From the NCBI GenBank assembly GCA_963556145.1, contig OY744462.1:6076001-6140000 (forward strand): DNA of 64,000 bases, given 5' to 3'. This document shows positions 14,197-63,960 of the stretch, in pieces (position 1 is the stretch's first letter; each line of letters starts with the position of its first letter). The position numbers and the translations under genes are program-made. Below the pieces are notes generated by a model. That model ran no database searches. It had not been told where the DNA came from and saw nothing but the letters and a program-made list of their open reading frames with translations. This DNA comes from Hygrocybe punicea. Taxonomy: Eukaryota > Basidiomycota > Agaricomycetes > Agaricales > Hygrophoraceae.

Positions 14197-16118
14197 ATGC
14201 TGCAGAGGCTTTCACACAACGCTTTTCGTCGAACGCCATCGGTCAAAAGCATTTCACGGTCTTCGACCGCTCGCAGAGGCTTTGTCCAACCTTCAGGTGC
14301 TGACAGAGCCATTGTCGTCAACGTTCCGTCATCATACCAAGAAGATGGGTTCAATAAGCTCACAATGCCCCGTCCCGAGATTGCGCTGAAAGGAGGAGTT
14401 CGTCCTATATACCTCGACATGCAAGTCAGTGACATCGGGTTTCCTCATTACCACTAGTCTTTACTGGTTTCTAGGCGACAACACCGGTGGATCCTCGGGT
14501 GCTGGATGCAATGCTTCCTTACTATACTGATATGTTCGGCAACCCTCATAGTCGGACTCATGCCTATGGATGGGAGAGTGAACAGGCCGTGGAAGATGCT
14601 CGAAAGGTGCACTATAACCACACTTCATTTTGCTTATTGTCAAGTTTACCGCATCTCATCAGCACGTCGCCGATCTCATCGGTGCTGAACCAAAGGATAT
14701 CGTTTTCACATCCGGGGCAACAGAAACCAACAATATGGCTTTGAAGGGTGTTGCTCGGTTTCATAAAGATAAAAAGCGACACATCATCACAACACAGACG
14801 GCATGTAGTTTATACTGCACGGTTTGACCGTATCACTTACATTGGTCACAAATTACAGGAACACAAATGTGTCCTTGACTCCTGTCGAAAGCTCGGAGAG
14901 GAAGGATTCGATGTGACATATTTGCCCGTCCAACAAAATGGCTTGGTTTCCTTGGAAACTCTGGAGGGTGCTATCCGGCCAGATACCTCATTGGTTTCAA
15001 TCATGTCTGTCAACAATGAAACGGGAGTCATCCAGCCCATGAAAGAAATTGGTGCTCTGTTGCGCAAACATCGTGGTATTTACTTCCACACAGACGCTGC
15101 CCAGGCTGCCGGCAAAATCCCCCTCGACGTGAACGAAATGAATATTGATCTCATGAGTATTTCTGGGCATAAACTATATGGACCAAAAGGCATCGGGGCA
15201 GCCTACGTTCGGCGAAGACCCAGAGTCAGACTGGAGCCGATATTGAGCGGTGGTGGACAGGAACGTGGGTTGAGGAGTGGGACACTTCCCCCTGCTCTTG
15301 TCGTTGGCTTGGGCGAGGCCGCACGCTTGGCCAAAAGGGAGATGAAGGTGGGTTCCAATGGATTTCAGAAATATGATGAAACTCGCACGCATGGAGTCGA
15401 GAAGCATTAGGCTCATTCAGGTGCTGTCTTGGAGCTGTTTGCTTGACCGTGACATTCGTGCAGGGGTACTGATTACATCAAAGCTCTTTATTACCTGTCT
15501 CGATATTCTGTTTCGTGCTTACCCACCTTGTTTCAGAGAGATCATGCTCGCGTTCAAGAACTCTCGAACCGGCTCATACAGGGAATCAACTCACATGTGG
15601 AACATGTGGTGAGAAACGGGGATGTCAATGGTTATGTCGGCTGCGTGAATCTTAGCTTCGCGTATGTGGAGGGCGAAAGTCTTTTGATGGCCCTGAAGGT
15701 GATGGCTAGCTGAAATTCCTTCATTGTCGCTCATGCTGTCCACTTGCATCAGAACATTGCTCTCTCATCGGGTAGCGCTTGCACATCAGCCTCACTAGAG
15801 CCATCATACGTCCTACGTGCTCTTGGTACGGTTTTGTGGGTATTTTTATCGCAACAAGCTGACCTCTGAGCTTCAGGTGCCGCCGAGGACATGGCCCATT
15901 CCTCGCTTCGCTTTGGAATCGGTCGTTTTACCACTGAAGCCGAGATTGATTACGTTGTGCGGCACATTGTAGGGACAGTAAAACGGCTCCGTGACATGAG
16001 GCATGTTCTCAAAATTATCTTGACATTTTTGCATACTAAGTGTGCCTTGCCCAGTCCGTTGTGGGAGATGGTACAAGAAGGAATTGACATCAATTCGATT
16101 GACTGGTCACAACATTAG
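14197..16118 (+). CDS. NFS1: Mitochondrial cysteine desulfurase NFS1
   Basis: Pyridoxal-phosphate enzyme that removes sulfur from cysteine for Fe-S cluster assembly in mitochondria, working with Isd11 and the scaffold Isu1. The start at 14197 lies in an ACCACCATG context and opens an Arg/Ser-rich mitochondrial presequence ([20 protein letters not shown]). Family landmarks follow: [40 protein letters not shown], the [11 protein letters not shown] segment, [25 protein letters not shown] (PLP lysine), [12 protein letters not shown] and the Cys loop [17 protein letters not shown]. It ends [10 protein letters not shown], as in eukaryotic NFS1. At 15349-15537 a roughly 190-nt intron with GT..AG ends is proposed, joining KREMK to [13 protein letters not shown]; smaller introns interrupt elsewhere. 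The gene appears complete. Confidence 0.95.
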
Positions 16119-33892: not shown

Positions 33893-35892
33893 ATGGCGGC
33901 TCTTGCAGCGTATGTTCAGCTTCTACTCCTTAGCTTGTCTCTCACGTTATAACCAGGATTCTACCACTACCCGTACATATTCCATCCATACCCGATGATG
34001 ACGAGGACTTCAACCTCCCCGAACCATCAACATCCACCGCCCTCATCACTCGTGCTTCTGCACCCCCATACGGCCAACGCCCAGGCTGGAAACCGTCAAC
34101 CCTAGATGACTTTGGTGAGTCTACACATTCGCGCCACCATTTGAATAATACGTGGACTTACCATGCTCTAGGCGACGGCGGTGCATATCCCGAATGTCAT
34201 GTTGCCCAGTATCCATTAGAGATGGGCCGGAAAAAGGTGCGCATAACCACCTCCAAATGCCGAACTCATTCCAACTCTTAATGCTACGCAGGCTTCATCC
34301 GGAAACACTCTCGCCCTCCAAGTCGACAGCGAAGGCAACGTGCGTTACGATGCCATTGCTCACCAGGGACAGCGTCACGGCAAAATCGTCCAATCCCAAT
34401 TCAAAGACCTCGTTCCTCTCACACACAGAAAAGACCTCGACGACTCCCAACGCACCATGGACAGACCTTCCGAAGAAGTGGTTCAAGCAACCGCCGACAA
34501 AACCCGCGCAGCCCTCGAAAAGCTTGTCAACGGCAAAATCAAGGCTGCCCAGCCAAAAAATGTACCAGACGGACAAGGAAAGACATCCTTTATTCGGTAC
34601 ACACCTGGTCAGCAGAATGGCGAAAGCGGCCTGAAGCAGCGCATCATCAAGATGTCAGAAGTCGTCGAAGATCCCCTCGAACCTCCCCGCTTCAAGCACA
34701 AAAAGATTCCAAAAGGCCCACCAAGTCCCCCTCCGCCCGTACTCCGTAGTCCTCCCCGAAAGGCGACAGCTGCAGAACAAAAGGAGTGGATGATTCCCCC
34801 TTGTATATCTAACTGGAAAAACAACAAAGGTTTCACAATTCCACTCGACAAACGCCTCGCTGCAGACGGCCGTGGGCTCCAGGACGTAAGTATCTCAATG
34901 CTTGCTTTGACGGCGCTGATCCTCGTTCCCATAGGTCCACATCAACGACAACTTTGCCAAATTTTCTGAGGCATTGTTCGTTGCTGACCGACACGCACGT
35001 GAGGAGGTAAGGCAGCGAGCGTTAATGCAGCAAAAACTGGCCCAAAAAGAAAAGGCGTCGAAAGAGGAAAACCTGCGCATGCTCGCACAGCGAGCACGCG
35101 AGGAGCGCGGTGGCTTCGTGCCAAAACCTACAACAGAAAGCCGTGCTGCCTTGAAGTCGTCACTAGCCGATTACGGCAGCGACGACGGGTCAAGGTCTGA
35201 GTCTGAGGGAAGCGAGGAGGACGAAGAGGCGCGCAAGATCCGTGACGAAATGCGGCAGGAGAAGCGACGCGAGCGTGAGCGCGAGATGCGGATGAGCAAC
35301 ATGGGCACGGAGCAACGTACCAAGATGCTTGCGCGGCAGCAGAATAGGGATATCTCGGAGAAGATCGCTCTAGGTCTCGCCAAGCCAACACTCTCGAAGG
35401 AGTCCATGCTTGACTCGCGTTTATTCAACCAGGAGTCGCTGTCGGGTAACTTTGCAGACGATGAGTCGTACAATCTGTACGACAGACCGCTGTTCCACGG
35501 ATCATCGGCTGCCGCTGCGATATACAAGGCGCGGGGGAATATTACCGAGGGTAATGACGCCATGTTTGGCGGTGGTACCGATGAAGGGATCGGAAAGGCT
35601 CTGGAAAATGATCGCTTTGGGTTGGGTCAGGCGCGGGTCGGGTTTGAGGGTGCTGCAGAGCAGGAGGTCAAGGAGGGTCCGGTGCAGTTCGAGAAAGACA
35701 CTAGTGATGTTTTTGGTCTTGATCAGTTCTTTGACGAAGCCAAGACAGGGAAGAAGAGGGGCTTGGATGTGTCGGCGTGAGTGTTCTCACTTTTGTTGGT
35801 TCTTTTTTACCCGGGTTTCTAACATCCTTGTAATACTCAGAGGAGGCGCACGGAAGCGTCAGCAACTGGAGAAGGCGACGGAGCGAGAATGA
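33893..35892 (+). CDS. PRP45: SKIP/SNW domain splicing factor (Prp45/SNW1)
   Basis: Core spliceosome component of the NineTeen-related complex, also a transcription co-regulator in animals. It starts MAALAAILPLPVHIPSIPDD after a tiny first exon. Family blocks: ASAPPYGQRPGWKPSTLDDF, GDGGAYPECHVAQYPLEMGR, and in the SKIP/SNW domain IPPCISNWKNNKGFTIPLDK, including the name-giving S-N-W-K-N, and RLAADGRGLQDVHINDNFAK. The acidic/basic helical tail follows (EEVRQRALMQQKLAQKEKAS, RREREREMRMSNMGTEQRTK, DISEKIALGLAKP). Near the end comes the typical LYDRPLFHGSSAAAAIYKAR block, then DVFGLDQFFDEAK and RGGARKRQQLEKATERE. Five or six introns. Complete. Confidence 0.95.
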
Positions 35893-36015: not shown

Positions 36016-37537
36016 ATGAACGTCAGCAATGGGGCCGGGGAATCGTCTACGGGAACCCTGGAACCTCTCCGCAAATCAGGTATTAGAACGGCTCTAGAAT
36101 TCACTGGTATTCCCACATCCTGGTTCAGCAAACGCCCCAAACTTCCATCCCGGAACTGGCTCATCTTCCTCACCGTCACCTCATCCATAACAGGTTTGTA
36201 TTTTTATGACAGACGGCAGTGTCGAAACATCCGCAGCGAGTACGTAGACCGGGTGAAACACCTCGCCGACGATCCCATGGATAGCATGGATTGGCCCCGA
36301 AAGGTCACGATCTACGGGTGCAAATGGCCTGGGGATGAGGAGCACGACCGGAGTATCAAGTATTTTCGCAAGTACGTCAAGGTTTGTCTGTCCATGTCAT
36401 GTTTTCTACCCCTCCAGTGCTTTTTTGACAGCAGCTTGTTTTCAGCCGATATTCGTTGCCGCTGCCGTGGACTATGAGATGATCAATGGGAAGAAGCATG
36501 GCGATCTCGCCCATCGCATCGCCGACGAAATCAAATCTCGTCGGCGGATAGCCCTGGGTCTGGACGTGCCGCGCGTGCCACCCATGTCGCTTCCAACACA
36601 CAAGTCGTCCGAGGAAACGCGCCAACACGAGCTTGGTGGAGGTATCGTTATCGTGGGCCGGCACACGTTCAAGGAGTTCATGACGGGCCTGAAATGGGGA
36701 TGGACGGATGGCCTAGAAAAAGTCGACAGAGACGAGTTGTTGGCCCGCGAGCTGGTGTCTGATGGCCATTTCGACGAGCCAGACGAGCTTCCAATGCACC
36801 CTCAACATCTAGACGACACCTCTCCGTCTCGCACTCCCTCCCCGAAAAATTCACCTGTGTATGCTCCTCTTAAAACAATCGGTCGACCATTTGTCCCAGT
36901 CGCCCGTCCAACCCAGCAATCGCCACTGCCACCCTCAGTTAATGGCTCACCGCCTTCCGTTATCCCACCACTTCCACCCATACTTTTCGTCCCTTTTACG
37001 AACTACATCGGTTTCACGCAAATACCACTTATGATCTGGGACTTCTTCAACCAGCGACATAAAGTTCGTTCCGGTGCCGAGGCGGCTTATCGCCTCATTA
37101 TGAAGGATATCCGTCCATTCGAGCCACCACCAGCTTCATCCGATGAAGAGTTGTCCGACGGCATACTGCCCACCCAAAATCCGCACAGTGATCTCCAGTT
37201 CGACAGGGACGCAGAGACCTATTACAAAACATCCCTCTCTTCTATTCCTGCTGACATCGAAAAGGCACGCAAGAAATACTATGATGCCCTCCCCACTCAA
37301 CTTGAAACGGCTCGCGCGATTTCACGTGGTACACGAGAGATGACAAAAGATGAGAAGGAGAACCCTCCGCCAACCGAGGTTGAGCTACGCGCAGAAAGGA
37401 TGAAAAAAGAAAAGAGATGGCGCGGTGATTTGGAGGGCTGGGAGATCGTCAAACCTGAGCAGGACGTCGCTTGGGACGAGAGATTTACGCATGCCTTGCG
37501 TGTTTTTGTCGACTCACAACCCGGCGATCAGTCATAG
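36016..37537 (+). CDS. TIM54: Mitochondrial inner-membrane translocase subunit Tim54
   Basis: Subunit of the TIM22 carrier translocase that inserts multispanning proteins into the inner mitochondrial membrane. The ATG at 36016 gives MNVSNGAGESSTGTLEPLRK. The conserved N-terminal signature follows (GIRTALEFTGIPTSWFSKRP, KLPSRNWLIFLTVTSSITGL), containing one membrane segment, then YDRRQCRNIRSEYVDRVKHL and WPRKVTIYGCKWPGDEEHDR. One intron at about 36380-36445 joins KYVK to PIFVAAAVDYEMINGKKHGD. The intermembrane-space part has Pro-rich inserts and IGFTQIPLMIWDFFNQRHKV. The end is VFVDSQPGDQS at 37537. Only two exons, so the model is firm. Confidence 0.94.
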
Positions 37538-37611: not shown

Positions 37612-40600
37612 TTACGACAATTCGGAAACAATGTCAACCTCGCCACTTAGCAACCAGGCTTCCATTTCAGCAAGGTCATCATCAAAGCTCACCACCTGGC
37701 CTATGTCTTGGTCTTGCTTCGTGAATTGAAGTTGATTGCTATTGCTTTTCGTCCAGTTAGGAGTGGGTGACCTTTCAATAACGTCGGCTTGTGCAGAAAT
37801 CGATGTCGTCAGCGCAGGAGTCGCCAGGCAATAAAAAGTCTCAAAGTCCAGAGAAGAGTCTGCGCTCTTTGCTTGCTTGTTGTGTGTCCCATCCAGATCG
37901 CTCGAGTTTTGTTGCTGATTCGGTTTGCTTTCATCATCGTCATCGTAATGTTTCGGGGATTCGGCAAAAAAGAGGGCTATTGAATCGTTGTTCCTTCGAG
38001 GTTCTCTGCTAAATTTCTTTGAAAGGCCAGACGTTATTTTATTAAATCAGGGATGGAGAGCAAACAGACTCGTTTGATAGGTGATGAAGGGGTTGCATTG
38101 GACCCATTAGGATCGTGAGGTTTCGATCGTTTGTTGGTATAGCTTGAATCAGGCGATCCTCTACCACGCTTTAAGTGTGGGGGCGGGGTCGAGGGCAACG
38201 GCGGCCCGTCTTCCAAATCGGTAGTGTAAACATCCAACGACACTTCTTGTGCACTTTGAGGGACAAGAGGACCCTTACATCCCTCCATGGGTATGTCGCG
38301 AATAAGAATATCTATATCGGAGTGCGGGTAGCTAGTTTCGGAAGACGTCGTCCATTTGGATGGCTTCAACATTTCGGACGGCTCTGGCAGGTTGTCGTTA
38401 TCGCTATAGTGATCGTGGAGGTCTACAGTCGGCCCAGCATCGTCATCGATGTTTGCGAGCTCAATGTCAAAATTAGGGGCCGGTTTGGATTTGGGCTTGA
38501 TATTGCTTTCGAGCTTCAATCGACCACCATCCGGAAGTTTCAGGTTACTTTGAACGTTCGTGCGCTTGTGTAAAGACTCTAGTTCCCGAAATCTGCGGTC
38601 AACCTGGCTAGCGTTCGTTTTCGCCGCTGCTTGAGCAATGTCACGCTCAGTATGATCAACTACCTTGCCAGTGGAGGCTGGATGCCGCTTTTTCGTATCC
38701 GGGGCAGGCGTGCCGTCTCGACAACTAAGAGGTGCGTCAGATGAGAGTGATGCTCGTAATTATCTCTCACCAGAGGTGCCGGCACTTCATCTTGTCTTTG
38801 CAACGGTGGTTGCACCTAGGATATTGTCAATGACATGTCTCGTGATAACGCCGTGAACCGACTGGTAGTTGCCGTTCGGAAGCTTTGTCGGAAGAACGGT
38901 ATGACTTGAGGACATTGAGGTTGGAGGTACTGCAGAGTTTGAAGATTTAATCGGCAGTGGTGTTGCTTTCGCTGTTGGTTGATCATCAGTGCCTCCGTAT
39001 CTCGACATGACCGATGAAGTTACACTTTCGCTCAGGCTTCGTCAGATCCTTTATGACGACAATTTTCTCATCTTCAGTGTCATCGATATCCATATTCCAA
39101 AAATCGGGATTATTCTCAAGCCCTTGGATATCCATATCCTAGGTGGTTGGATAGAGGATTAGGTATGGGCATGGATATGGTAAAAAATTGTTACGATTGA
39201 GTTGCCCGGGCGGGTATCCATTGTCGGGTACTCCTTTGGGTCGAGGTTGGGTTTGTGTAGGCTAGTGACCGTCACACCAGCAACTGATTCCTGTAAGTTT
39301 AATTGATTTCGGAGCAAACGAGGCAAAAGCAAATAACTTACAGATGCAATACAAACAAGAATCGATTGACTAGGCTTCGTTAACTGAGCGGCCACCTCGA
39401 AAATTTTCGGCACTGCAAGGGCTTTTGTTCTGCGGGGAACGATAGAAACCGGAAAGATAAGTTACAAAACACCTCACATACGGTATCCGGCGAAAATCAA
39501 TAAAGTCCATATCCGATGTTAAAATCAAGACTGCAGTCATGTTCAGGGTACGGCTCCTTTGTTTCTTCGCCTTGGAGGTAATTGATGGCTCTGCCAGCCC
39601 ACATTCAATGGATAGGACCACCTCGACAGGATTTTTGCCTCCGCTGGATATGATTTCCGTTTCCGTTACCTTCAGGAAATAGTTTGGAAGTTCACGTGCC
39701 GAGGCTATGACCTCCAAGCCAAAAGGAGGTCGACGGTTCAGGAGCTATGGGAGTAGGAGCGTTGGTATTCTTATCAACATGCTAGCACTGTTCGCTCACA
39801 GTTTCGATCCTCATTGGATCCTGTTTGCGCAATAAATCTATGGAAGTTACCCCGCTTCCGGCAAGAATCTGATGACGATTTAACACTTGATTTATGACGA
39901 CTAAATGGTCCGACCTTGAGTCTACGAAGGGAAGAATTAGTCGATCAACAAGAATTCTGTTCATTGAAAGCATACGATTTTTCTCCAATTTGTTCAATCT
40001 GACGCAAGACGACCGGTCGGTCTTCCCAGGCCTTCGCCGTGAAACATCGGAGCCTTACCTCACCATCAGACAGGCAAATGGAATAAAAAATCCACAGGAC
40101 TCACAGTTCCATACTATACTTCAATTGAGATCCCAGTTTTTTGACGACCGCGACTTCTACCATGGCTGTAAGACCTAAGGTCAGCAGGTGGTAGTGTGTC
40201 ATGAGTTAATATCACGACCTCTTGCGATTCTGGGGAGATGGCGGAAAATATTGAAGACGTCTAGTTGAGGTTGGCTATCTGCACTCTGATACTCTGGTGC
40301 GTTTAGGGATATGCCTCCAAGAACGGCCTGGGCCCAAAATTTCAGTAAATTTGTTGTGTCGCAATAAGTCATACCTGGATTAAGAGAAATATTTTGTCCG
40401 CGGTCTTTTCCACCTTTTTCAGTTCAAACCGAATGTCGATATGTTTCCGAAGGGTATTGTAAATCTGGGTTCGCTTTAGATACTATTCGAAGATGAGAGG
40501 GATTCCTTTACCCGCTTCTCAGAACTCCGAAGCTTTGTATCGGCAAGTCTGTAATATTTGTAGGCAGTCAGGCAAAAAGAAAGTTTGATAGATCAACGAA

Positions 40601-43600
40601 CTCCTCAGAAGCTGCAATCATTTCCAGCTAAGATTAGAAGAGTGTAAGCGTTCTCAGCATAAAATGATTCAAATTAAGCTTCTGACCATTTCTCGCATGT
40701 TGGCGCGTGCGGGTAGAGCAAGAATTAAGCCCATCTTAAACCCAACAATTCAGAGGATTTTTGAAGCAGTTGAAGGCACAAACCGTCGACAGGCGGATAT
40801 AAAACTAGAAAAGTCAGGATTCAGAAAACAGAAAGCCACGATTCATGGGCCTACTTTGCTCATGATGTCGCCATATTCAGTTGACCGCAACCCAGCATCA
40901 CCGACAGCAGTGTGAATCACCAATTCTGTCTTTTGCAGCTTTGCAACACTTTGCATTACCAATTCATCAATCCTTTCTTCCCAAGATTGGTTGTCCTCCT
41001 TGCCAAGAGCGTAATGATTTGGATTCTTCTGGATCCTCCGAAATAGGAAAGAGTTGTGCAACCACTCCTTCGCGGAGTCAATATGGGTGATCGTCCCAAG
41101 GCCAATCTCGGAGTTGAGATGCTCGGAAAGATTGCGGTGGAGACTGCTCTCAAGGATGGTCTTTCCTTGGACGAGCGATTTATATTTGTGCTCAAGCTCG
41201 TTTTCACAAAGAATGATAGCAATGCCATCATTGTCTAGTTTTTAACAATGAATTGAGGAAATATTTCAGGTGAAATGCGCTTACCAAACTGTGGGCGGCC
41301 CTGAAGAAAAATGACCATCATTTAGATGCACATTTCGCCAAACGAGGCTCACTCACAGCCCGACCCAACATCTGCACTACATCAAGATCGGAATATTCTA
41401 CCGAGACGTTATTTTGGAAGGTGTGAACGCCTTTTATCACGACAGTATGCGCGGCTAAATATTAATATGTTACGAACGATTCTAGACCAGGATATTCTCG
41501 TAAAAGACACCACGTACGCAGATTAACGCCGACAGCTAAAGTCTTATTATAATAAATGGTTTCAGAAACATAACGTCGAGAAATGGCAACAGAGAAAACA
41601 TACGGATGTGGCAACAACTACCTTGAGGATCCCCTTGAGATAAAGGTCTTCTACTGCGCGTCTATCATCCATGCTTAAGCCTGCGTGATGTACCCCTATT
41701 CCACAGCTCGCAAGGTCTGTCCGTGTCCATAACGAGAGCGTAAGAAACATCGGGTGGAAGTGCACTGCTCACCATTCAATCGTTTTTCATTGAAGATGCG
41801 ATCAATACTATGGCACAATGTCAGAGAGATTCCGCACCAAGAAAACAAAGGTAAAACCTCGTTGGCCGAGACCAGGGCAGCGATTGCTTCTTATCTGATG
41901 CTTCCTGGTATTCCTTTGCTAGTTGCTCAGCAGAAATAAATGTTCCTGAACGATGAATTGGTATGGAACAACACAAGAATGGAATTCGGAATCCTTGCCT
42001 TTTCTCGTTGACACAAAAATGAGCACAGGTTTTTTGGCCGAATGTTGAACCAGTGACGAAAAAAGATGGTAATCTAAGCTGCGCGCAAAAACGAAGTCAT
42101 TCTGATTCTTCGGTCGGTGAATTCCGTAAACAAAGCGAGTCAGCTTGCAAGGCCGGAATTCCTCCCCAAACTAAAGAGGTCGAAAAACAATCAAAACAAG
42201 CCTTGTGCTTTATCAATGTAAGTCCAAACCTGAAAAACAGCTGCAGGGCCATCCGAGTCGACACAACCAATCCAACTAGCAATATCTTCAATGTTGGGAA
42301 CCGTTGCCGACACTAACGCGAATCGGATGCTTGAGCCCCGAAACTTCATGCGCGATATGACGACCTCCAGGGTACTACCACGAGATTCATTTAAAATGTG
42401 AACCTAATAATCCGTCAAATTTATACACGCAGTAAAAGACCGAGCGCACCTCATCGACAAGGAAGAGTTGGATTTGGGAGAGGATTCGGTGGTGTTCACC
42501 CCTGTCCGCGAGAATAAAGACCTTCAATAATTTCCAACTATGAATCACGAACTCACCAGTTTCTTGTAAGGCTATCCCATTTCTCTCCCTTTGCACACGA
42601 CATCCAATTAGTCAAATAGCGAATCATCAGTGAAAAGTTCGTACCGTGGTAATGCTGTACTCTGGTGGTCAGTGAAGGCGATTTATAAAACAATGAAATT
42701 TACAAACATGATGGATGCATTCTTCGCATCGCCCCAGGCGCCCCTACCAAATTGCACAGTATCACCAGTCAATTCACAGCCTATCAAAAAGCGCACGTGA
42801 GGCGATAAGAACATATACAATAGTATTCCCTTACATTTCACACCCAAAGCATCAAACTTAGCCATCCAATCTCTGTATCTTTCGGAGCACAGCGCCTGGG
42901 CAGTGAGTCATTTGAATTTACGGTATTCATATCTCGACGGAGAAGCTAAAAACCTTCGTCGGCGCCATGTAAACACATTTCGCCAAGTTTTTCGGCGCAT
43001 TGGTAAGCATACGAATAATAGCGAGTTCAAATAGAACTGTCTTGCCACTACCCGTGGGAGCTGTGACATGTCAGAACGTCCTGGATACCACGTCATACAT
43101 AACAAACCACTGATAACCTAACTGGAGAATCAGCAGCTAAAAGAAGAAATGCCAGTGACAGTTGTACCAGATTCTCATCAGAATGTAAAACCTGGTAAAG
43201 GAACAATCATGAGGATGCGAGAGGATGGGTGGGGTGCAATTGACCTTATCGAAGCACATGGATTGAACGGCATTGAAGACTCCGAATTTGAATATGCCAC
43301 GATACATGTCGGCTACGACAACATTCCATTGTCATGTCCGAAACTGGGGAATATGCACGCACGAAGTTCAGAAACAGGCCGTAAACGTGTTCTATTGGAA
43401 TTGCGAGGGTTCGACCCGCGGACATATCCTGGATGAAGTTCGGGGGTTTGATGCGCGTTCGTGGAATTATACGGTGTAGAGTTATTTTGAATTTGATGTG
43501 AAGAGGCTTGTACAAAGTTGTGTTGTGTCTCATAGGGATGGGGGCCGCCAACAAGAGTTGGCAACGAGGAGGGTAGTTCTACATGACTATGTGAAAAAAA

Positions 43601-57525: not shown

Positions 57526-57541
57526 ATAGTATAGCACCACC

Positions 57542-60310
57542 ATAGCTTCCTCTTCCCGTATCCCTCCCTCTGACCATCGTCTTCGAGATCTTCCTCGAAG
57601 AACTCTTCAACAAGAACTCTCTTTAGCCGCCTTCGACCCGACAATCGACGATGACTTCTTCCAGCTAGTACCCGACCACCTCGCTCGACATAACAATCTC
57701 CCGCTCGTCTCAGGGTCAAACACCCCCCTATATCTTTCATCCGACAGTCTCGAATCGGTCGATATACCGATAATCACCATTACACCCGACTCATCCGATC
57801 TCAGTTCGACACCCGCATCGCCTACGTCCCCGACTTCGACCTCGTTAGAACCCCCGTCCATGTCTTCGCTCTCGACATCGAAAACTCCGTCATCATCATT
57901 GTCTCCGTCTTCGCTCTCAACATCGAAAACTCCGTCATCGTCATCGTCCCCGTCTTCGTCTTCGTCCACGCCGTCATCGTCCACGTTACCCGACCCGCTC
58001 ATCGTACACCCGACAACCGCTTCATCAACATCTCAGCTCCTTCCACCCACAATGACTTCGACCTCTGGATCTTCAACCGCTCCCCACGTTACCGCTCCCC
58101 ATGTTACTCCACGACAAATGCCCGCTCGTGGTCACTCCACGGCCCCGACCTTCGATGGGAACCCGCTCAATTTAAACCGCTTCTTCGAAGAAGTCGAGAT
58201 ACTTGCTGCCGATGCCACTCTCGACGACGCAGGACGCATCAAGCATAGTCTGCGCTACGCATCGCTTAGCGACTACGAGCTTTGGGCAAGCTTACCTAGC
58301 GCGACCGGCGTCGATTATGCCGCATTCAAAAGGAGTGTACTCGTGCTATACCCAGGCACGGAAGACGACCACCGGTACACTATGGCGGATCTCGACCGTC
58401 TTACGCACACCCAAACCGCTTACGGTATCCGTACCCGTGCTGAACTTGGCGAATATTACCGCGAGTTCATCCGAATCTCAGGGTTTCTTCTAGACAAGGG
58501 TCGGATCTCTCCCCGAGAACGCAACATTGCGTACGAGAACGGCTTCCATGTCGAGCTTAAAAAGGACATCAAAACCGGTCTGCAGTACCAAAAACCGAAC
58601 CATTTCCATAGCGACCCTTACGACTTCCAGGACTTCCACAATTGCGCCCACTTCCTACTGGCCGGAACCGTGGCCGAACCATCCACCGTCTCTCGTCTAT
58701 CGTCAACATCGCCTGCCACCATCCGGTACTTGACTCCAATAGAACCCGCCACCCGCTACCCGCCACCCGCTCGCTACGACCCGGTCATTCCTAAAGCAGA
58801 ACCGATCGAGCCTAACGTATCCGACCTCTTTCGTCTCGTTTCGCAACAACTCGCCGTCCTCACGCAAGCCCTCACCGAACGTAACAACCCCCCAAAGCCA
58901 TGTGCAAATAGGGCTGAGCCGACCACCGCAGGACAGGGTTTCACCAATTTCAACTGCCTCTTTTGTGACGACCCGTTCCATCGTATACGCGATTGTCCCA
59001 TCTGCGAGCAGTACACTCGAGACGGGATATGCTGCAAGAACGAGCACGGCCGCATCGTGTTGCCTAACGGAATGTATCTTCCAAAGGCTATCGTCGGCAA
59101 AAATATGAGGGAACGCTTCGACGCGTGGCACACACAGAACCCCGGCAACCGCGCTCCCCCTGCCCGCAACCCCACAGAACCGTTCCAACGTGACCCGCCG
59201 CCTCATGTCAAAGCTAACTTCATCTCCGCCGTCGAAGTACCCACCTACGAACCAGAGGTCACCACCGAGTACGCCGACATCTTTCAGTCCACGACGTCCG
59301 ACATCGACGACGACAACGAACAAATCAAGGTTCTGGAAGCCGAAGTGCAGCGGCTTCATAAATGGGTTAGATTTGACGGCGTAGAGATCCCCTCTAAAGT
59401 GAAAGGCAAGTCTAGAGAGACGTATCCCAATCCGCCCACCACTTCCACGTCCGTCCCCGCCTTGAAACCCGCCGAGAAAACGTCTACCAGACCTGTCAAC
59501 GAGCACCCGATCACCATCGTTCCACCTTCGAACACGCGGCCGACCGAGCCAACCGCCTTCGTGCCGCGCACTCCCCAGAACCTTCCCGCGTCGCACCCCC
59601 AGTACTGCTACCAGGCCCCCATCGAAGATCCCGGTATCGCCAAATCCGTCATCGACCGCGCGCTCGATTCTCAAGTCTGCATTTCGCAACGAGAACTTTT
59701 AGCCATGTTGTCCGACGCCCGCCGTCACATGAAGGACCTCACTACGTCGAAAAAGGTCACCGCCGAGAGTAACAACGTCGAGGTCTTCCATTTTCACGCA
59801 CCCGAAATCCCCACTCGCGCCTGTCAACACTGTCAGGAAAACGTCCCGCTTGTCGTCGGCCGCGACTCAGTCCCTCTCCGTGCGGTCTACCCGCTCATCA
59901 ACGGCAAATTCGTATTCGAGTGCGTCCTCGACAGCGGTTCCATGATCATCGGCATGCGACGCGATATTTGGGAGTAACTCGGTTACGGCCTCCAAAACAT
60001 GAAGATGTGAATGCAGTCAGCAAACAAGAGCGACAACGATACCCTCGGCCGGATCGCGAATCTTAAATTCACCTTCGGCGACGTCGATCTTTTCCTCCAA
60101 GTCCAAGTCGTCGACAACGCCCCCTACGAGATCCTCATCGGCCGCCCGTTCTTCACGCTTTCCGAAGCCCTTACGAAGGATTATAAAAACGGAGAACAAC
60201 AAGTCACGATTACGGACCCAAACACCGGCGCCGTCGTCACCTTGCCCACCATCGAGCACAACCAAAAGAACCGACGAGAGCGGTCCGACACCGGAAAACC
60301 GGATTTTTAG
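57542..60310 (+). pseudogene. Gypsy gag-protease frame with internal stops
   Basis: A single frame is open from 57542, where ACCACCATAGCT replaces an expected ATG, through the first ATG at 57860 to 59977. The N-terminus has Ser/Thr-rich 45-bp tandem repeats (57868-57955). The gag core includes APTFDGNPLNLNRFFEEVEI and ELGEYYREFIRISGFLL. A zinc knuckle CLFCDDPFHRIRDC (CX2CX4HX4C) lies near 58951-58992. The aspartic protease begins FECVLDSGSMIIGM (DSG active site). A TAA at 59975 and a TGA at 60008 then interrupt, and the frame resumes (DTLGRIANLKFTFGDVDLFL, APYEILIGRPFF, flap/ILIG motif) to a TAG at 60308. The reading frame does not shift until there. Confidence 0.85.
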
Positions 60311-63300
60311 AAGTCGAGGACCCGGAGATACCTCTCGGGAAGGACGCACCGGGAGATGAGAAGCCGCCACTCGAAAGTGACCACACCTATACCACGAACT
60401 ATGCTTCCCTTTTGCCGTTTCCCCTAGAAGAGGACTTATGTTTTTCTATCGATTTAGATTTCTCTTCGTCTCAGCCTCAGACTGCGGCCCAGTACATTTC
60501 ATTGTTGACCGATGTACAAAAACAGCTACGTACTACCGATACCCTTCCTTCGTCTTCTTCCGTCTCCGCTCCTGCGTCACATATTTCTTCTTCGAATATT
60601 TGTAACAAGGCCTCTACTGAACACGCTACTTATATCTCGTATACCACCCCCCCTACCAGGGACCTAAAAGGAGTCGTTACCAAGAAAAAGTATAAGAAGG
60701 TAGCCGATCGTATCCGCCCAATTTCTACCACTCTCCCCGATGAATACCGTATCATAAGCGAGATCACCGGCGACCCGCTAGCCGATTTACCCACGCTCCC
60801 GACTCACCCGCCCGACTTTACACCCGGCACCCGCTATACCCAGGAACGACACGATGCGATGCCGATGAACCCGGATGGATTCCTTTGGCCTGAGGAAGAA
60901 AAACTCGGCCACCATATCATCAAAACGCAAGAAGCCGCCTTCGCCTGGAACGAATCCGAGAAAGGCCAGTTCAATACGGACTACTTCCCGCCGATCCACA
61001 TTCCCACCATACCACACGACCCGTGGGTCCATCGCAATATCCCAATCCCACCCGGCATCCTTAACGAAGTCATCGGCATCATCAAAGACAAAATTAACGC
61101 CGGTACCTATGAACCCTCGAATTCGTCATACCGCTCCCGCTGGTTCTGCGTTTTGAAAAAGGACGGGAAGTCTCTTCGAATCATCCACGATCTACAGCCG
61201 CTTAACGCCGTCACTATCCGCGATCCCGCCGTACCGCCCATGACCGAGCACTTGGCCGAGGCCTTTGGCGGCCACTCTTGCTACGCTTCCTTCGACCTCT
61301 TCGTCTCTTTCGACCAACGTCTCGTCCACCCCTCGTCTCGGGACTATATGACCTTTCAGTCTCCACTCGGAACACTTCGACTTATGCGGATTGCTATGGG
61401 ATACACAAATTCCCCGCAGATCCTACACGGTGACTCCACGTACATCCTCCGTGACGAAATCCCTCATCTTGCCGTTCCGCATATGGACGATATTCCCGTC
61501 AAAGGGCCTCCAACCCGTTACGAACAACCCGACGGTACCTACAAGACTATACCCGAGAACCCGGCAATCCGACGTTTCATTTGGGAGCACTTCCAAGGTG
61601 TCAACCGCGTCATCCAGCATTTCCGCTATGTCGGCGGTACCTTCAACGGCAAAAAACTCGAGTTGTGTCGACCCTCAGTCATCGTTGTCGGCCACCGATG
61701 CACATACGAAGGAAGAGTAGCCGACGACTCCAAAGTACAGAAGATTCGCGATTGGCCACTGCCGACCAACCTCACCGAAGTTCGCACCTTTCTCGGTATC
61801 TGCGGCGTCTTGCGTATTTTTATCAAGGACTTCTCGCTCCACTCCCGACCCCTCGTCCGTCTTACCTGCAAAGGTATACCCTTCGAATTTGGTGAAGAAG
61901 AAGAGACCACCGTCGACTACCTCAAAAACGCCGTCATTTCATCGCCAGTGCTGCGCGCTATCGACTACACGCGTGAATGGGAAGTGATTCTCGCCGTCGA
62001 TTCATCCGTTCTTGGAGTTGGCTTCGTTCTTATGCAAATCCGCGCCGACGGAAAGCGCTATCTGAATCGTTTTGGTTCAATATCGTGGAACGAACGCGAA
62101 GCCCGATACTCCCAGTCCAAGCTCGAACTCTACGGCCTCTTCAGGGCCCTCCGCGCCTATCGGATTTTCATTATCGGCGTCCGCAACCTCACCGTTGAAG
62201 TCGACGCGAAGTACATAAAAGGGATGCTCAACAACCCCGACATTCAGCCCAATGCAACGATCAACCGATGGATAGCCGGCGTGCTCTTATTTGACTTTAG
62301 ACTCGTTCACGTACCCGCTTCCGCACACGGTGCACCCGACGGACTCTCCCGATGCCCCCGCGCTGCAGAAGACCCCGAGGAGATCAACGACTCCGACGAT
62401 TGGCTCGACTACTCCTACGGTTTCTTTATGGAAGTCGTCAACTACCGACCCGTCCCCACACCGTCTAAGCCGATTGCCATATGCGGCCGCTGCCGTGCCA
62501 CAGCCGACCGACTCCAAGAATTACCGGCCGTCCTCGTCTACACAAATCAGGAAGCCGTTTCTGACATACCGCGATCCGATAAAGCCCGCGCGGCCGACGC
62601 TCGTCTTGCCCTCGTCGAGATCTGGTTACGAGATCTAACCCGACCCGCGAACTTCACGGACGAAGAATACCGTCTGTTCTTACGATACGCCCTTGAATTC
62701 TTCGTCACTGATAACAAGCTTTGGCGCAAAGACCGTCACGGAAAACACAAACTCGTCATACCGCCCGACCGCCGGCTTCAGTTACTCAAAGACGCTCACG
62801 ACTCTCTCGGCCACAAAGGTATATTCTCCGTCCGCGCTCGGCTACTCGATCGTTTCTGGTGGCCGCACCTTGACCACGACGTTAAGTGGTACGTCCAGTC
62901 TTGCCATCAGTGCCAAGTACGGCAAATGCGTTATCATCACATTCCGCCCACCGTCGCTACACCGGCCTCACTATTTCGTAAAGCGTATGTCGACACAATG
63001 TTTATGCCACGATCCGGCGGCTATCGATACATCGTCCAAGCCCGTTGCTCCCTGTCCGCTTACCCTGAGTTCCACATGTTACGCCGCGAGACCGGCTCCA
63101 CCATCGGCACGTTCTTGTTCGAAGACATCTTATGCTGTTGGGGCGCTCTCGAAGAAATCGTTACCGACAATGGCAAGCCGTTCGTAGAGGCACTCAACTA
63201 TCTCGCCTCCCGCTACGGTATCCGGCACATCCGCATTTCGCCCTATAACTCACAAGCGAACGGACCCGTTGAGCGTCGCCACCTAGATGTCCGGGAGGCC

Positions 63301-63960
63301 ATTATGAAAAGTTGTGACGGAGATGAAAAGAAATGGCACACCGTAACCCACTCCGTATTTTGGGCCGAACGGGTCACGACACACAAAAGCCTCGGATACT
63401 CGTCCTACTACATCGCACACGGAGTAGAACCGCTTTTTCCATTCGATTTTGCCGAAGCTACGTACATGGTTCCGACGCAAGATACGATGTCTACGACTGA
63501 CCTCATAGTCATCCGCGCCCGACAACTTCGTAAACGAGAAGCTGACCTCGATCGGGTCAAAGAAAAGCTTACCAAATCTCGGCTCGCGTCCGCCCGGCAA
63601 TTCGAGCAGAAATACGCCAACACGATCAAAGTTTATGACTTCGAACCTGGTAACCTCGTTCTCGTCTGAAATTCACGTATCGAAATGTCTCTCGATCGTA
63701 AAGCAAAACCGCGGTACTTTGGACCCATGGTTGTCGTCAGGAAAACAGAAGGCGGATCCTACATACTCGCCGAACTCGACGGTGCGGTTTCTAAATCTCG
63801 ATTTGCCGCTTTCCGAGTCGTACCCTACCACGCCCGCTCAAAAATATCGATACCGTTGGACGACTTCTTACAATACCCCGATGCCGACGATACCGATTCA
63901 AACGATCTTGATGATCCGACGTACCCGCCCTCTATAAACTCCTCACCCGACGGCGATTAA
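60301..63960 (+). pseudogene. Gypsy pol: reverse transcriptase, RNase H, integrase
   Basis: Frame -1 relative to gag, open from about 60301; first ATG 60412; uninterrupted 1085 codons to a TGA at 63667. Reverse transcriptase: WFCVLKKDGKSLRIIHDLQP, LNAVTIRDPA, GTLRLMRIAMGYTNSPQI and the catalytic HMDDIPVKGP (the two Asp retained). RNase H: WEVILAVDSSVLGVGFVL, SQSKLELYGLFRALRAYR, TVEVDAKYIKGML. Integrase: zinc domain HDSLGHKGIFSVRARLL with SCHQCQVRQ (HHCC), core YVDTMFMPRSGGYRYI, EIVTDNGKPF and GPVERRHLDVREA (D, D, E). After the TGA the same frame continues (RKAKPRYFGPMVVVRKTEGG, SYILAELDGA) to 63960, so the integrase tail is cut by one stop. Confidence 0.9.

What the first reader, a model, noticed from the sequence alone, without database searches (positions are those of the whole stretch)
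43111..43117. Inferred 7-nt microexon immediately before the Walker A motif of HFM1
On the minus strand GTTATCA lies between two introns of exactly 50 nt each (GTACAACTG..GTTAG and GTGGTTTG..CACAG). Only with this exon does HSDENL join to VITPTGSGKT in frame. Skipping would shift the frame before the ATPase core and destroy the helicase, so inclusion could be an on/off switch, perhaps meiosis-specific.
Basis: partly seen in the sequence, partly recalled or inferred. Interest (0 to 1): 0.75.

Follow-up and report, generated by a model that had tools for sequence, protein, structure and literature searches.

The report
Ten-base microexon in mushroom meiosis helicase
A mushroom-type meiotic DNA helicase gene has a tiny exon, ten bases rather than the seven first proposed, that supplies the residues leading into its ATP-binding site; it looks like a normal, conserved part of an intron-crowded gene that gene finders often get wrong, and nothing found shows it to be an on/off switch.

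Summary
GTTATCA is at 43117-43111 (minus strand) as stated, and a microexon does join HSDENL to the helicase motif I. But the exon is best read as 10 nt, GTTATCAGTG (43117-43108), followed by a 47-nt intron with donor GTTTGT. It gives VISA-PTGSGKT; 70 of the 120 listed relatives have a VISA-like tetrapeptide there. The 7-nt form gives VIT-PTGSGKT and loses the alanine that begins Walker A; its donor GTGGTT scores below all 28 other donors of the gene.

The gene is intact and intron-dense: 30 introns of 46-63 nt in the modelled part, with further microexons of 10, 16 and a true 7 nt. Public models of relatives break at junctions touching exons of 10 nt or less in 158 of 579 cases, elsewhere in 176 of 2344. 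So the exon looks conserved and constitutive in Agaricomycetes, and often mis-annotated. Skipping shifts the frame, but 22 of 29 exon skips and 28 of 30 intron retentions in this gene give a stop, so that is no sign of a switch. Yeast MER3 splicing is meiosis-regulated, so the idea is testable but unsupported. No cDNA or relatives' genomic DNA was available.

The parts
43108..43117 (-). 10-nt microexon GTTATCAGTG: codons for V, I, S and the first base of the Ala that starts Walker A (APTGSGKT)
   Evidence: Best of 41 open GT-AG splice paths, family profile, donor score, shuffles
43118..43167 (-). Upstream intron, 50 nt, GTACAA..GTTAG, phase 0; weak donor (2.0 bits; 1 of 28 other donors scores lower); CTGAT branch-like site with 12 nt after its A
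43061..43107 (-). Downstream intron, 47 nt, GTTTGT..CACAG, phase 1; ordinary donor (6.31 bits), low-scoring acceptor (3.16 bits); CTGAC branch-like site with 10 nt after its A
43168..43191 (-). Preceding exon, 24 nt (VLHSDENL)
42954..43060 (-). Following exon, 107 nt, holds the rest of motif I and beyond (PTGSGKTVLFELAI..)
42645..42654 (-). Second 10-nt microexon CATTACCACG (within IITTGEKWD)
   Evidence: similar mis-annotation in relatives
41285..41300 (-). 16-nt microexon (GRPQF and the first base of the next codon); its junctions are rarely disrupted in relatives
39915..39921 (-). True 7-nt microexon ACTCAAG (completes S, then L, K of GEKSLK)
   Evidence: similar mis-annotation in relatives
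39192..43307 (-). Modelled part of the HFM1/MER3 helicase gene, 31 exon pieces and 30 introns; the gene continues upstream (an intron 43362-43313 joins further coding sequence) and probably downstream

Best explanation
It is a constitutive, conserved 10-nt coding microexon (43117-43108, minus strand) of an ordinary Agaricomycete HFM1/MER3 gene. Introns of 50 and 47 nt flank it. Shown by sequence: the exon restores the family sequence ENL-VISA-PTGSGKT and is followed by a good donor. Inferred: each short intron is recognised as a unit (intron definition), and the two are removed one after the other, since ten bases leave little room for splicing factors at both exon edges at once; the downstream intron, with the better donor, may go first. 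The exon is kept in productive mRNA because skipping it, or keeping either neighbouring intron, ends the protein early. On/off control of the helicase is most likely transcriptional, as reported for Coprinopsis.
For: Splice-path enumeration and family profile: 97.9 bits against 81.9 for the 7-nt form; only paths with this exon give VISAPTGSGKT (2 of 41 GT-AG paths, 4 of 73 with GC donors allowed; all use it). Donor scores 6.31 against -0.16. 70 of 120 listed relatives have a VISA-like tetrapeptide before PTG[SG]GKT: V in 65, S in 68, A in 69 of the 70. Public models break at junctions touching the exons of 10 nt or less: 158 of 579 locatable cases against 176 of 2344 at the other 24 junctions. 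Of 6 aberrant models that keep VIS or IIS and then diverge (P0013, P0050, P0066, P0082, P0084, P0105), 5 go on with G, as a retained intron G|GT would read; G is 5.4% of all residues in the set (a seventh row of that list, P0114, is left out because its VVS fits the upstream-intron reading). Of 9 that keep ENxV and then run into other sequence, 7 have S, R or G next, as GTNNGT would read; S, R, G and C make up 21.5% of residues (related species, not independent). Microexons are known in basidiomycetes: in Phanerochaete P450 genes the shortest exon is 6 bp, and nearly one third of the P450ome shows microexons (there 2-10 aa) (PMC1184071, passages).
Against: No cDNA or RNA-seq was consulted, and no relative's genomic DNA; conservation of the intron positions is inferred from faulty protein models. 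The upstream donor GTACAA is weak (2.0). In the upstream intron two other AGs score above the chosen acceptor (4.04): 43137 with 7.64, which would leave a 31-nt intron, and 43122 with 4.83; the downstream acceptor (3.16) is near the bottom of the 28. Three of 120 models (P0102, P0112, P0116; Boletales for Leucogyrophana and for Boletus) read VVT/VIT-PTGSGKT as the 7-nt form would. One VIS-keeping model (P0105) goes on with P, and two ENxV models (P0033, P0047) with K, not as expected. The splice-site matrix was trained on introns that I placed by hand. 46 of 120 models are aberrant at this point, some through a late start, and 4 lack PTG[SG]GKT, so those 50 do not speak for the tetrapeptide directly.
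Confidence: 0.87

Rival explanations
1. One reading: a 7-nt exon GTTATCA, donor GTGGTT, 50-nt second intron, product VIT-PTGSGKT, either the main form or a minor tandem-donor form (the two donors lie 3 nt apart and both keep the frame).
For: It keeps the frame; three Boletales models read VIT/VVT-PTGSGKT.
Against: Donor scores -0.16, below all 28 other donors; family score 16 bits lower; it replaces the Ala present in 69 of 70 intact relatives that opens the Walker A pattern [AG]xxxxGK[ST] (pattern recalled).
Confidence: 0.05
2. Meiosis-specific splicing switch: exon skipping or intron retention here gives a dead helicase in vegetative cells, and splicing is completed only in basidia.
For: Skipping, or retaining either or both introns, ends the protein early. 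The upstream donor is weak. In yeast the orthologue MER3 depends on meiotic Mer1 for splicing, and Mer1-dependent introns have non-consensus donors (PMC6380292, passages). A switch-like microexon is reported in Trichoderma Xlr2 (PMC11121469, start of abstract and passages).
Against: A stop after mis-splicing is the rule in this gene (22 of 29 skips, 28 of 30 retentions). 7 of 9 relatives' models with upstream-intron sequence fit an ordinary GTNNGT donor there, so the weakness is probably not conserved (inference; 2 of 9 do not fit). Fungi show comparatively low exon skipping. Coprinopsis mer3 is reported in meiotic gill tissue only. No ATACCC element lies in either flanking intron.
Confidence: 0.06
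3. There is no microexon: the region is read through or spliced by another path, or holds a sequence error.
For: 41 open GT-AG paths exist, one with a single 99-nt intron; many public models lack the tetrapeptide.
Against: No open path without exon 43117-43108 gives VISAPTGSGKT; 0 of 20000 shuffles match it; the rest of the modelled gene is intact.
Confidence: 0.02

Closest known systems
Microexons of basidiomycete intron-dense genes (Phanerochaete chrysosporium P450ome, PMC1184071, passages seen)
   Same: Exons down to 6 bp, frequent short introns of 45-55 bp
   Different: Different gene family, microexon there means 2-10 aa; alternative splicing was seen there for CYP63, here nothing is tested
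Conserved, often mis-annotated plant microexons (PMC8831610, abstract and passages seen)
   Same: Conserved coding microexons of 15 nt or less, about half not multiples of three, missed by annotation
   Different: Plants, shown with RNA-seq; here a fungus, inferred from protein families
Trichoderma virens Xlr2 microexon switch (PMC11121469, start of abstract and passages seen)
   Same: A microexon in a filamentous fungus
   Different: There inclusion depends on glucose and both isoforms are used; here no sign of regulation
Mer1-dependent splicing of S. cerevisiae MER3/HFM1 (PMC6380292, passages seen)
   Same: Same gene family; splicing can limit expression to meiosis
   Different: An enhancer-bearing intron in yeast; here some 30 short introns and no ATACCC element in the two flanking ones

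Membership tests
HFM1/MER3 meiotic Ski2-like helicase | DEAD helicase core, Helicase_C, winged helix and Sec63 domains in order | tested here: met
   (query held three extra residues, later corrected)
HFM1/MER3 meiotic Ski2-like helicase | Best relatives are MER3/HFM1, not BRR2 or SLH1/ASCC3 | tested here: met
   the 120 listed of 3332 hits have 72-55% identity over 82-100% of the query, several named MER3 or HFM1; in the solved-structure search, which showed no MER3/HFM1 entry, the best hit was ASCC3
HFM1/MER3 meiotic Ski2-like helicase | Meiotic role | not testable with these tools
   known for relatives only
Coding microexon (15 nt or less) | Internal exon of 15 nt or less between AG and GT | tested here: met
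   10 nt
Coding microexon (15 nt or less) | Presence in mature mRNA | not testable with these tools
   no transcripts held
Coding microexon (15 nt or less) | Conserved in relatives | tested here: inconclusive
   Encoded peptide conserved; exon boundaries inferred from faulty models
Regulated switch microexon | Condition-dependent inclusion | not testable with these tools
   needs RNA from two tissues
Mer1-type regulated intron | AUACCCUU enhancer in the intron | tested here: not met
   ATACCC on the gene strand between 43923 and 38600 only at 40457 and 39217, not in the flanking introns

The most novel reading that the evidence does not exclude
The set of frame-breaking microexons in Agaricomycete HFM1 (10, 10 and 7 nt) acts as a splicing gate: slow, ordered removal of their introns, limited here by the weak donor GTACAA, keeps stray vegetative transcripts unproductive until a meiotic splicing factor is present, a parallel to Mer1 control of yeast MER3 reached by other means.
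Probability: 0.06. Interest if true: 0.65.

Novelty: new member of a known kind. Interest (0 to 1): 0.25.

Why it matters
The practical value is in annotation: of the 120 listed HFM1/MER3 models, 46 are aberrant just before the ATP-binding site and 4 lack the motif, many in a way that points to this microexon. Comparative studies of meiosis genes that use such models could call working genes broken. It also offers a compact test of how fungi splice exons of 10 nt or less.

Tried and rejected
A first MAFFT-based conservation profile showed only weak contrast at the microexons, probably blurred by inserted intron sequence, and was replaced by an anchor-spacing test. A slow version of that test timed out with no output. 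A first family regex was off by one residue and gave a useless one-sequence profile; it was corrected. My own gene model had one wrong acceptor, adding three residues (IARGLTAM); the relatives exposed it (0 of 111 locatable intact) and it was corrected to 40218-40166. The junctions around the 26-nt exon 40627-40602 are also often disrupted in relatives (0.34 and 0.35) while those of the 16-nt exon are not (0.02 and 0.03), so exon size alone does not explain the pattern. Paper searches showed no title or abstract start on an HFM1/MER3 microexon: 20 of 61 listed; 6 of 6; 5 of 5; 9 of 9; 9 of 9; 10 of 14; 10 of 20; that is no proof of absence.

Full report
What is there. The minus strand of the window carries an intact HFM1/MER3-type helicase. 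The spliced model from 43307 to 39192 has 30 introns of 46-63 nt (median 53) and no stop in 843 codons. An intron at 43362-43313 joins more coding sequence upstream, so the ATG at 43307 is internal. Pfam finds DEAD, Helicase_C, the SNRNP200 winged helix, Sec63 and ResIII. One search found 3332 proteins at E <= 1e-30 among 7990 scored and listed the best 120; all my counts on relatives use these 120. The closest is a Mycena protein (72% identity, 100% of the query); all names that I recognise are Agaricomycetes (recalled), several named MER3 or HFM1. Searches were run with a model that held three extra residues. The window lies in a genome of 92,203,976 bases in 42 contigs; outside this gene the matches have at most 43% identity (best E 2.6e-62 at 36%).

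The microexon. Between the exon ending HSDENL and the one beginning CTCCCACGGGTAGTGGCAAGACA, residues are missing that the family spells VISA. GTTATCAGTG supplies GTT ATC AGT G, and the G joins CT to make the alanine of APTGSGKT. Among 41 open GT-AG splice paths the 10-nt path scores 97.9 bits against a profile of 60 uninterrupted relatives, a path with a 2-nt exon 85.4, the 7-nt path 81.9; with GC donors allowed there are 73 open paths and the same leader. VISAPTGSGKT appears in 2 of the 41 and 4 of the 73, always through exon 43117-43108. A donor matrix from the 28 other introns, all placed by hand by me, gives 6.31 to GTG|GTTTGT and -0.16 to TCA|GTGGTT; the 28 range from 1.9 to 8.4. The acceptors are less clean: in the upstream intron AGs at 43137 (7.64; it would leave only 31 nt) and 43122 (4.83) outscore the chosen one at 43118 (4.04), and the downstream acceptor scores 3.16, near the lowest of the 28. 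None of 20000 dinucleotide shuffles of the stretch held an equally good 10-nt exon; 138 held one with any positive score.

Relatives. Of the 120, 70 have a VISA-like tetrapeptide before PTG[SG]GKT, 46 have something else, 4 have no such motif. Many of the 46 look like gene-prediction failures at a microexon. In 18 of them ENxV is kept and the sequence then diverges: 4 after VIS (P0013, P0066, P0082, P0105), 3 jump straight to PTG (P0060, P0083, P0099), 2 go on with I (P0112, P0116), and 9 run into other sequence, 7 of them with S, R or G next (P0027, P0037, P0043, P0055, P0102, P0113, P0114), as a retained GTNNGT donor would read, and 2 with K (P0033, P0047). Of 6 models that keep VIS or IIS and then diverge, 5 go on with G (P0013, P0050, P0066, P0082, P0084), as a phase-1 intron G|GT would read, and 1 with P (P0105). 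G is 5.4% and S, R, G, C together 21.5% of residues in the set. The reading back into bases is my inference, and species of one genus are not independent. Over the gene, junctions touching the exons of 10, 10 and 7 nt are disrupted in 158 of 579 locatable cases, the other 24 junctions in 176 of 2344 (cases where a flank could not be located were set aside; the cases are not independent, so the Fisher p-value of 3.7e-34 overstates the certainty; a rank test over the 30 junctions gives p = 0.002). Exceptions are told under Tried and rejected.

Is it a switch? But 22 of 29 single exon skips and 28 of 30 single intron retentions in the modelled gene also give a stop, so this does not single the exon out. 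Against regulation: fungi have comparatively low exon skipping (PMC6142364, passages seen); [quoted passage not shown] For it: the upstream donor GTACAA is weak, 2.0 bits, with 1 of 28 other donors lower, and yeast MER3 needs the meiotic factor Mer1 for splicing, Mer1-dependent introns having non-consensus donors (PMC6380292, passages). The upstream-intron readings of relatives mostly suggest normal donors there, so the weakness looks local (inference). I put a regulated switch at about 6%.

How it is probably spliced. Both introns carry a branch-like CTGAY, with 12 and 10 nt after the A. With introns this short, recognition across the intron is the expected mode (established knowledge), and a 10-nt exon is then no obstacle provided the introns go one after the other. 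The order, downstream first, is a guess from donor strength.

Known kind. Basidiomycete microexons are described: Phanerochaete P450 genes have exons down to 6 bp, and nearly one third of the P450ome shows microexons of 2-10 aa (PMC1184071, passages). Pervasive mis-annotation of conserved microexons is described in plants (PMC8831610, abstract and passages). A switch-like microexon in a fungus is described in Trichoderma (PMC11121469, start of abstract and passages). I saw no paper on an HFM1 microexon in the listings, of which only titles and abstract starts were seen. The finding is a new, useful but ordinary member of a known kind.

Noticed in passing
41998-41946 (minus): A GC-AG intron (GCAAGG..TTCAG, 53 nt) in the helicase gene, the only non-GT donor of the 30 modelled.
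   Followed up: no
39921-39915 (minus): A true 7-nt microexon (ACTCAAG) in the same gene; relatives' models often distort it (KSYVLAE, KSTVLAE).
   Followed up: partly
42654-42645 (minus): A second 10-nt microexon before GEKWD, with a similar mis-annotation rate in relatives.
   Followed up: partly
57530-63669 (plus): An open frame that looks gag-like to me (57530-59977, not scanned) and a pol-like frame (RNase H, integrase zinc binding; rve below its cut-off) of an LTR-type retroelement.
   Followed up: no
34247-34966 (plus): SKIP/SNW domain (a spliceosome-associated family, recalled), about 4 kb from the modelled end of this intron-rich gene; probably coincidence.
   Followed up: no
36257-37534 (plus): Tim54 mitochondrial import subunit.
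   Followed up: no
14745-15407 (plus): Class-V aminotransferase frame, cysteine desulfurase-like by my reading.
   Followed up: no
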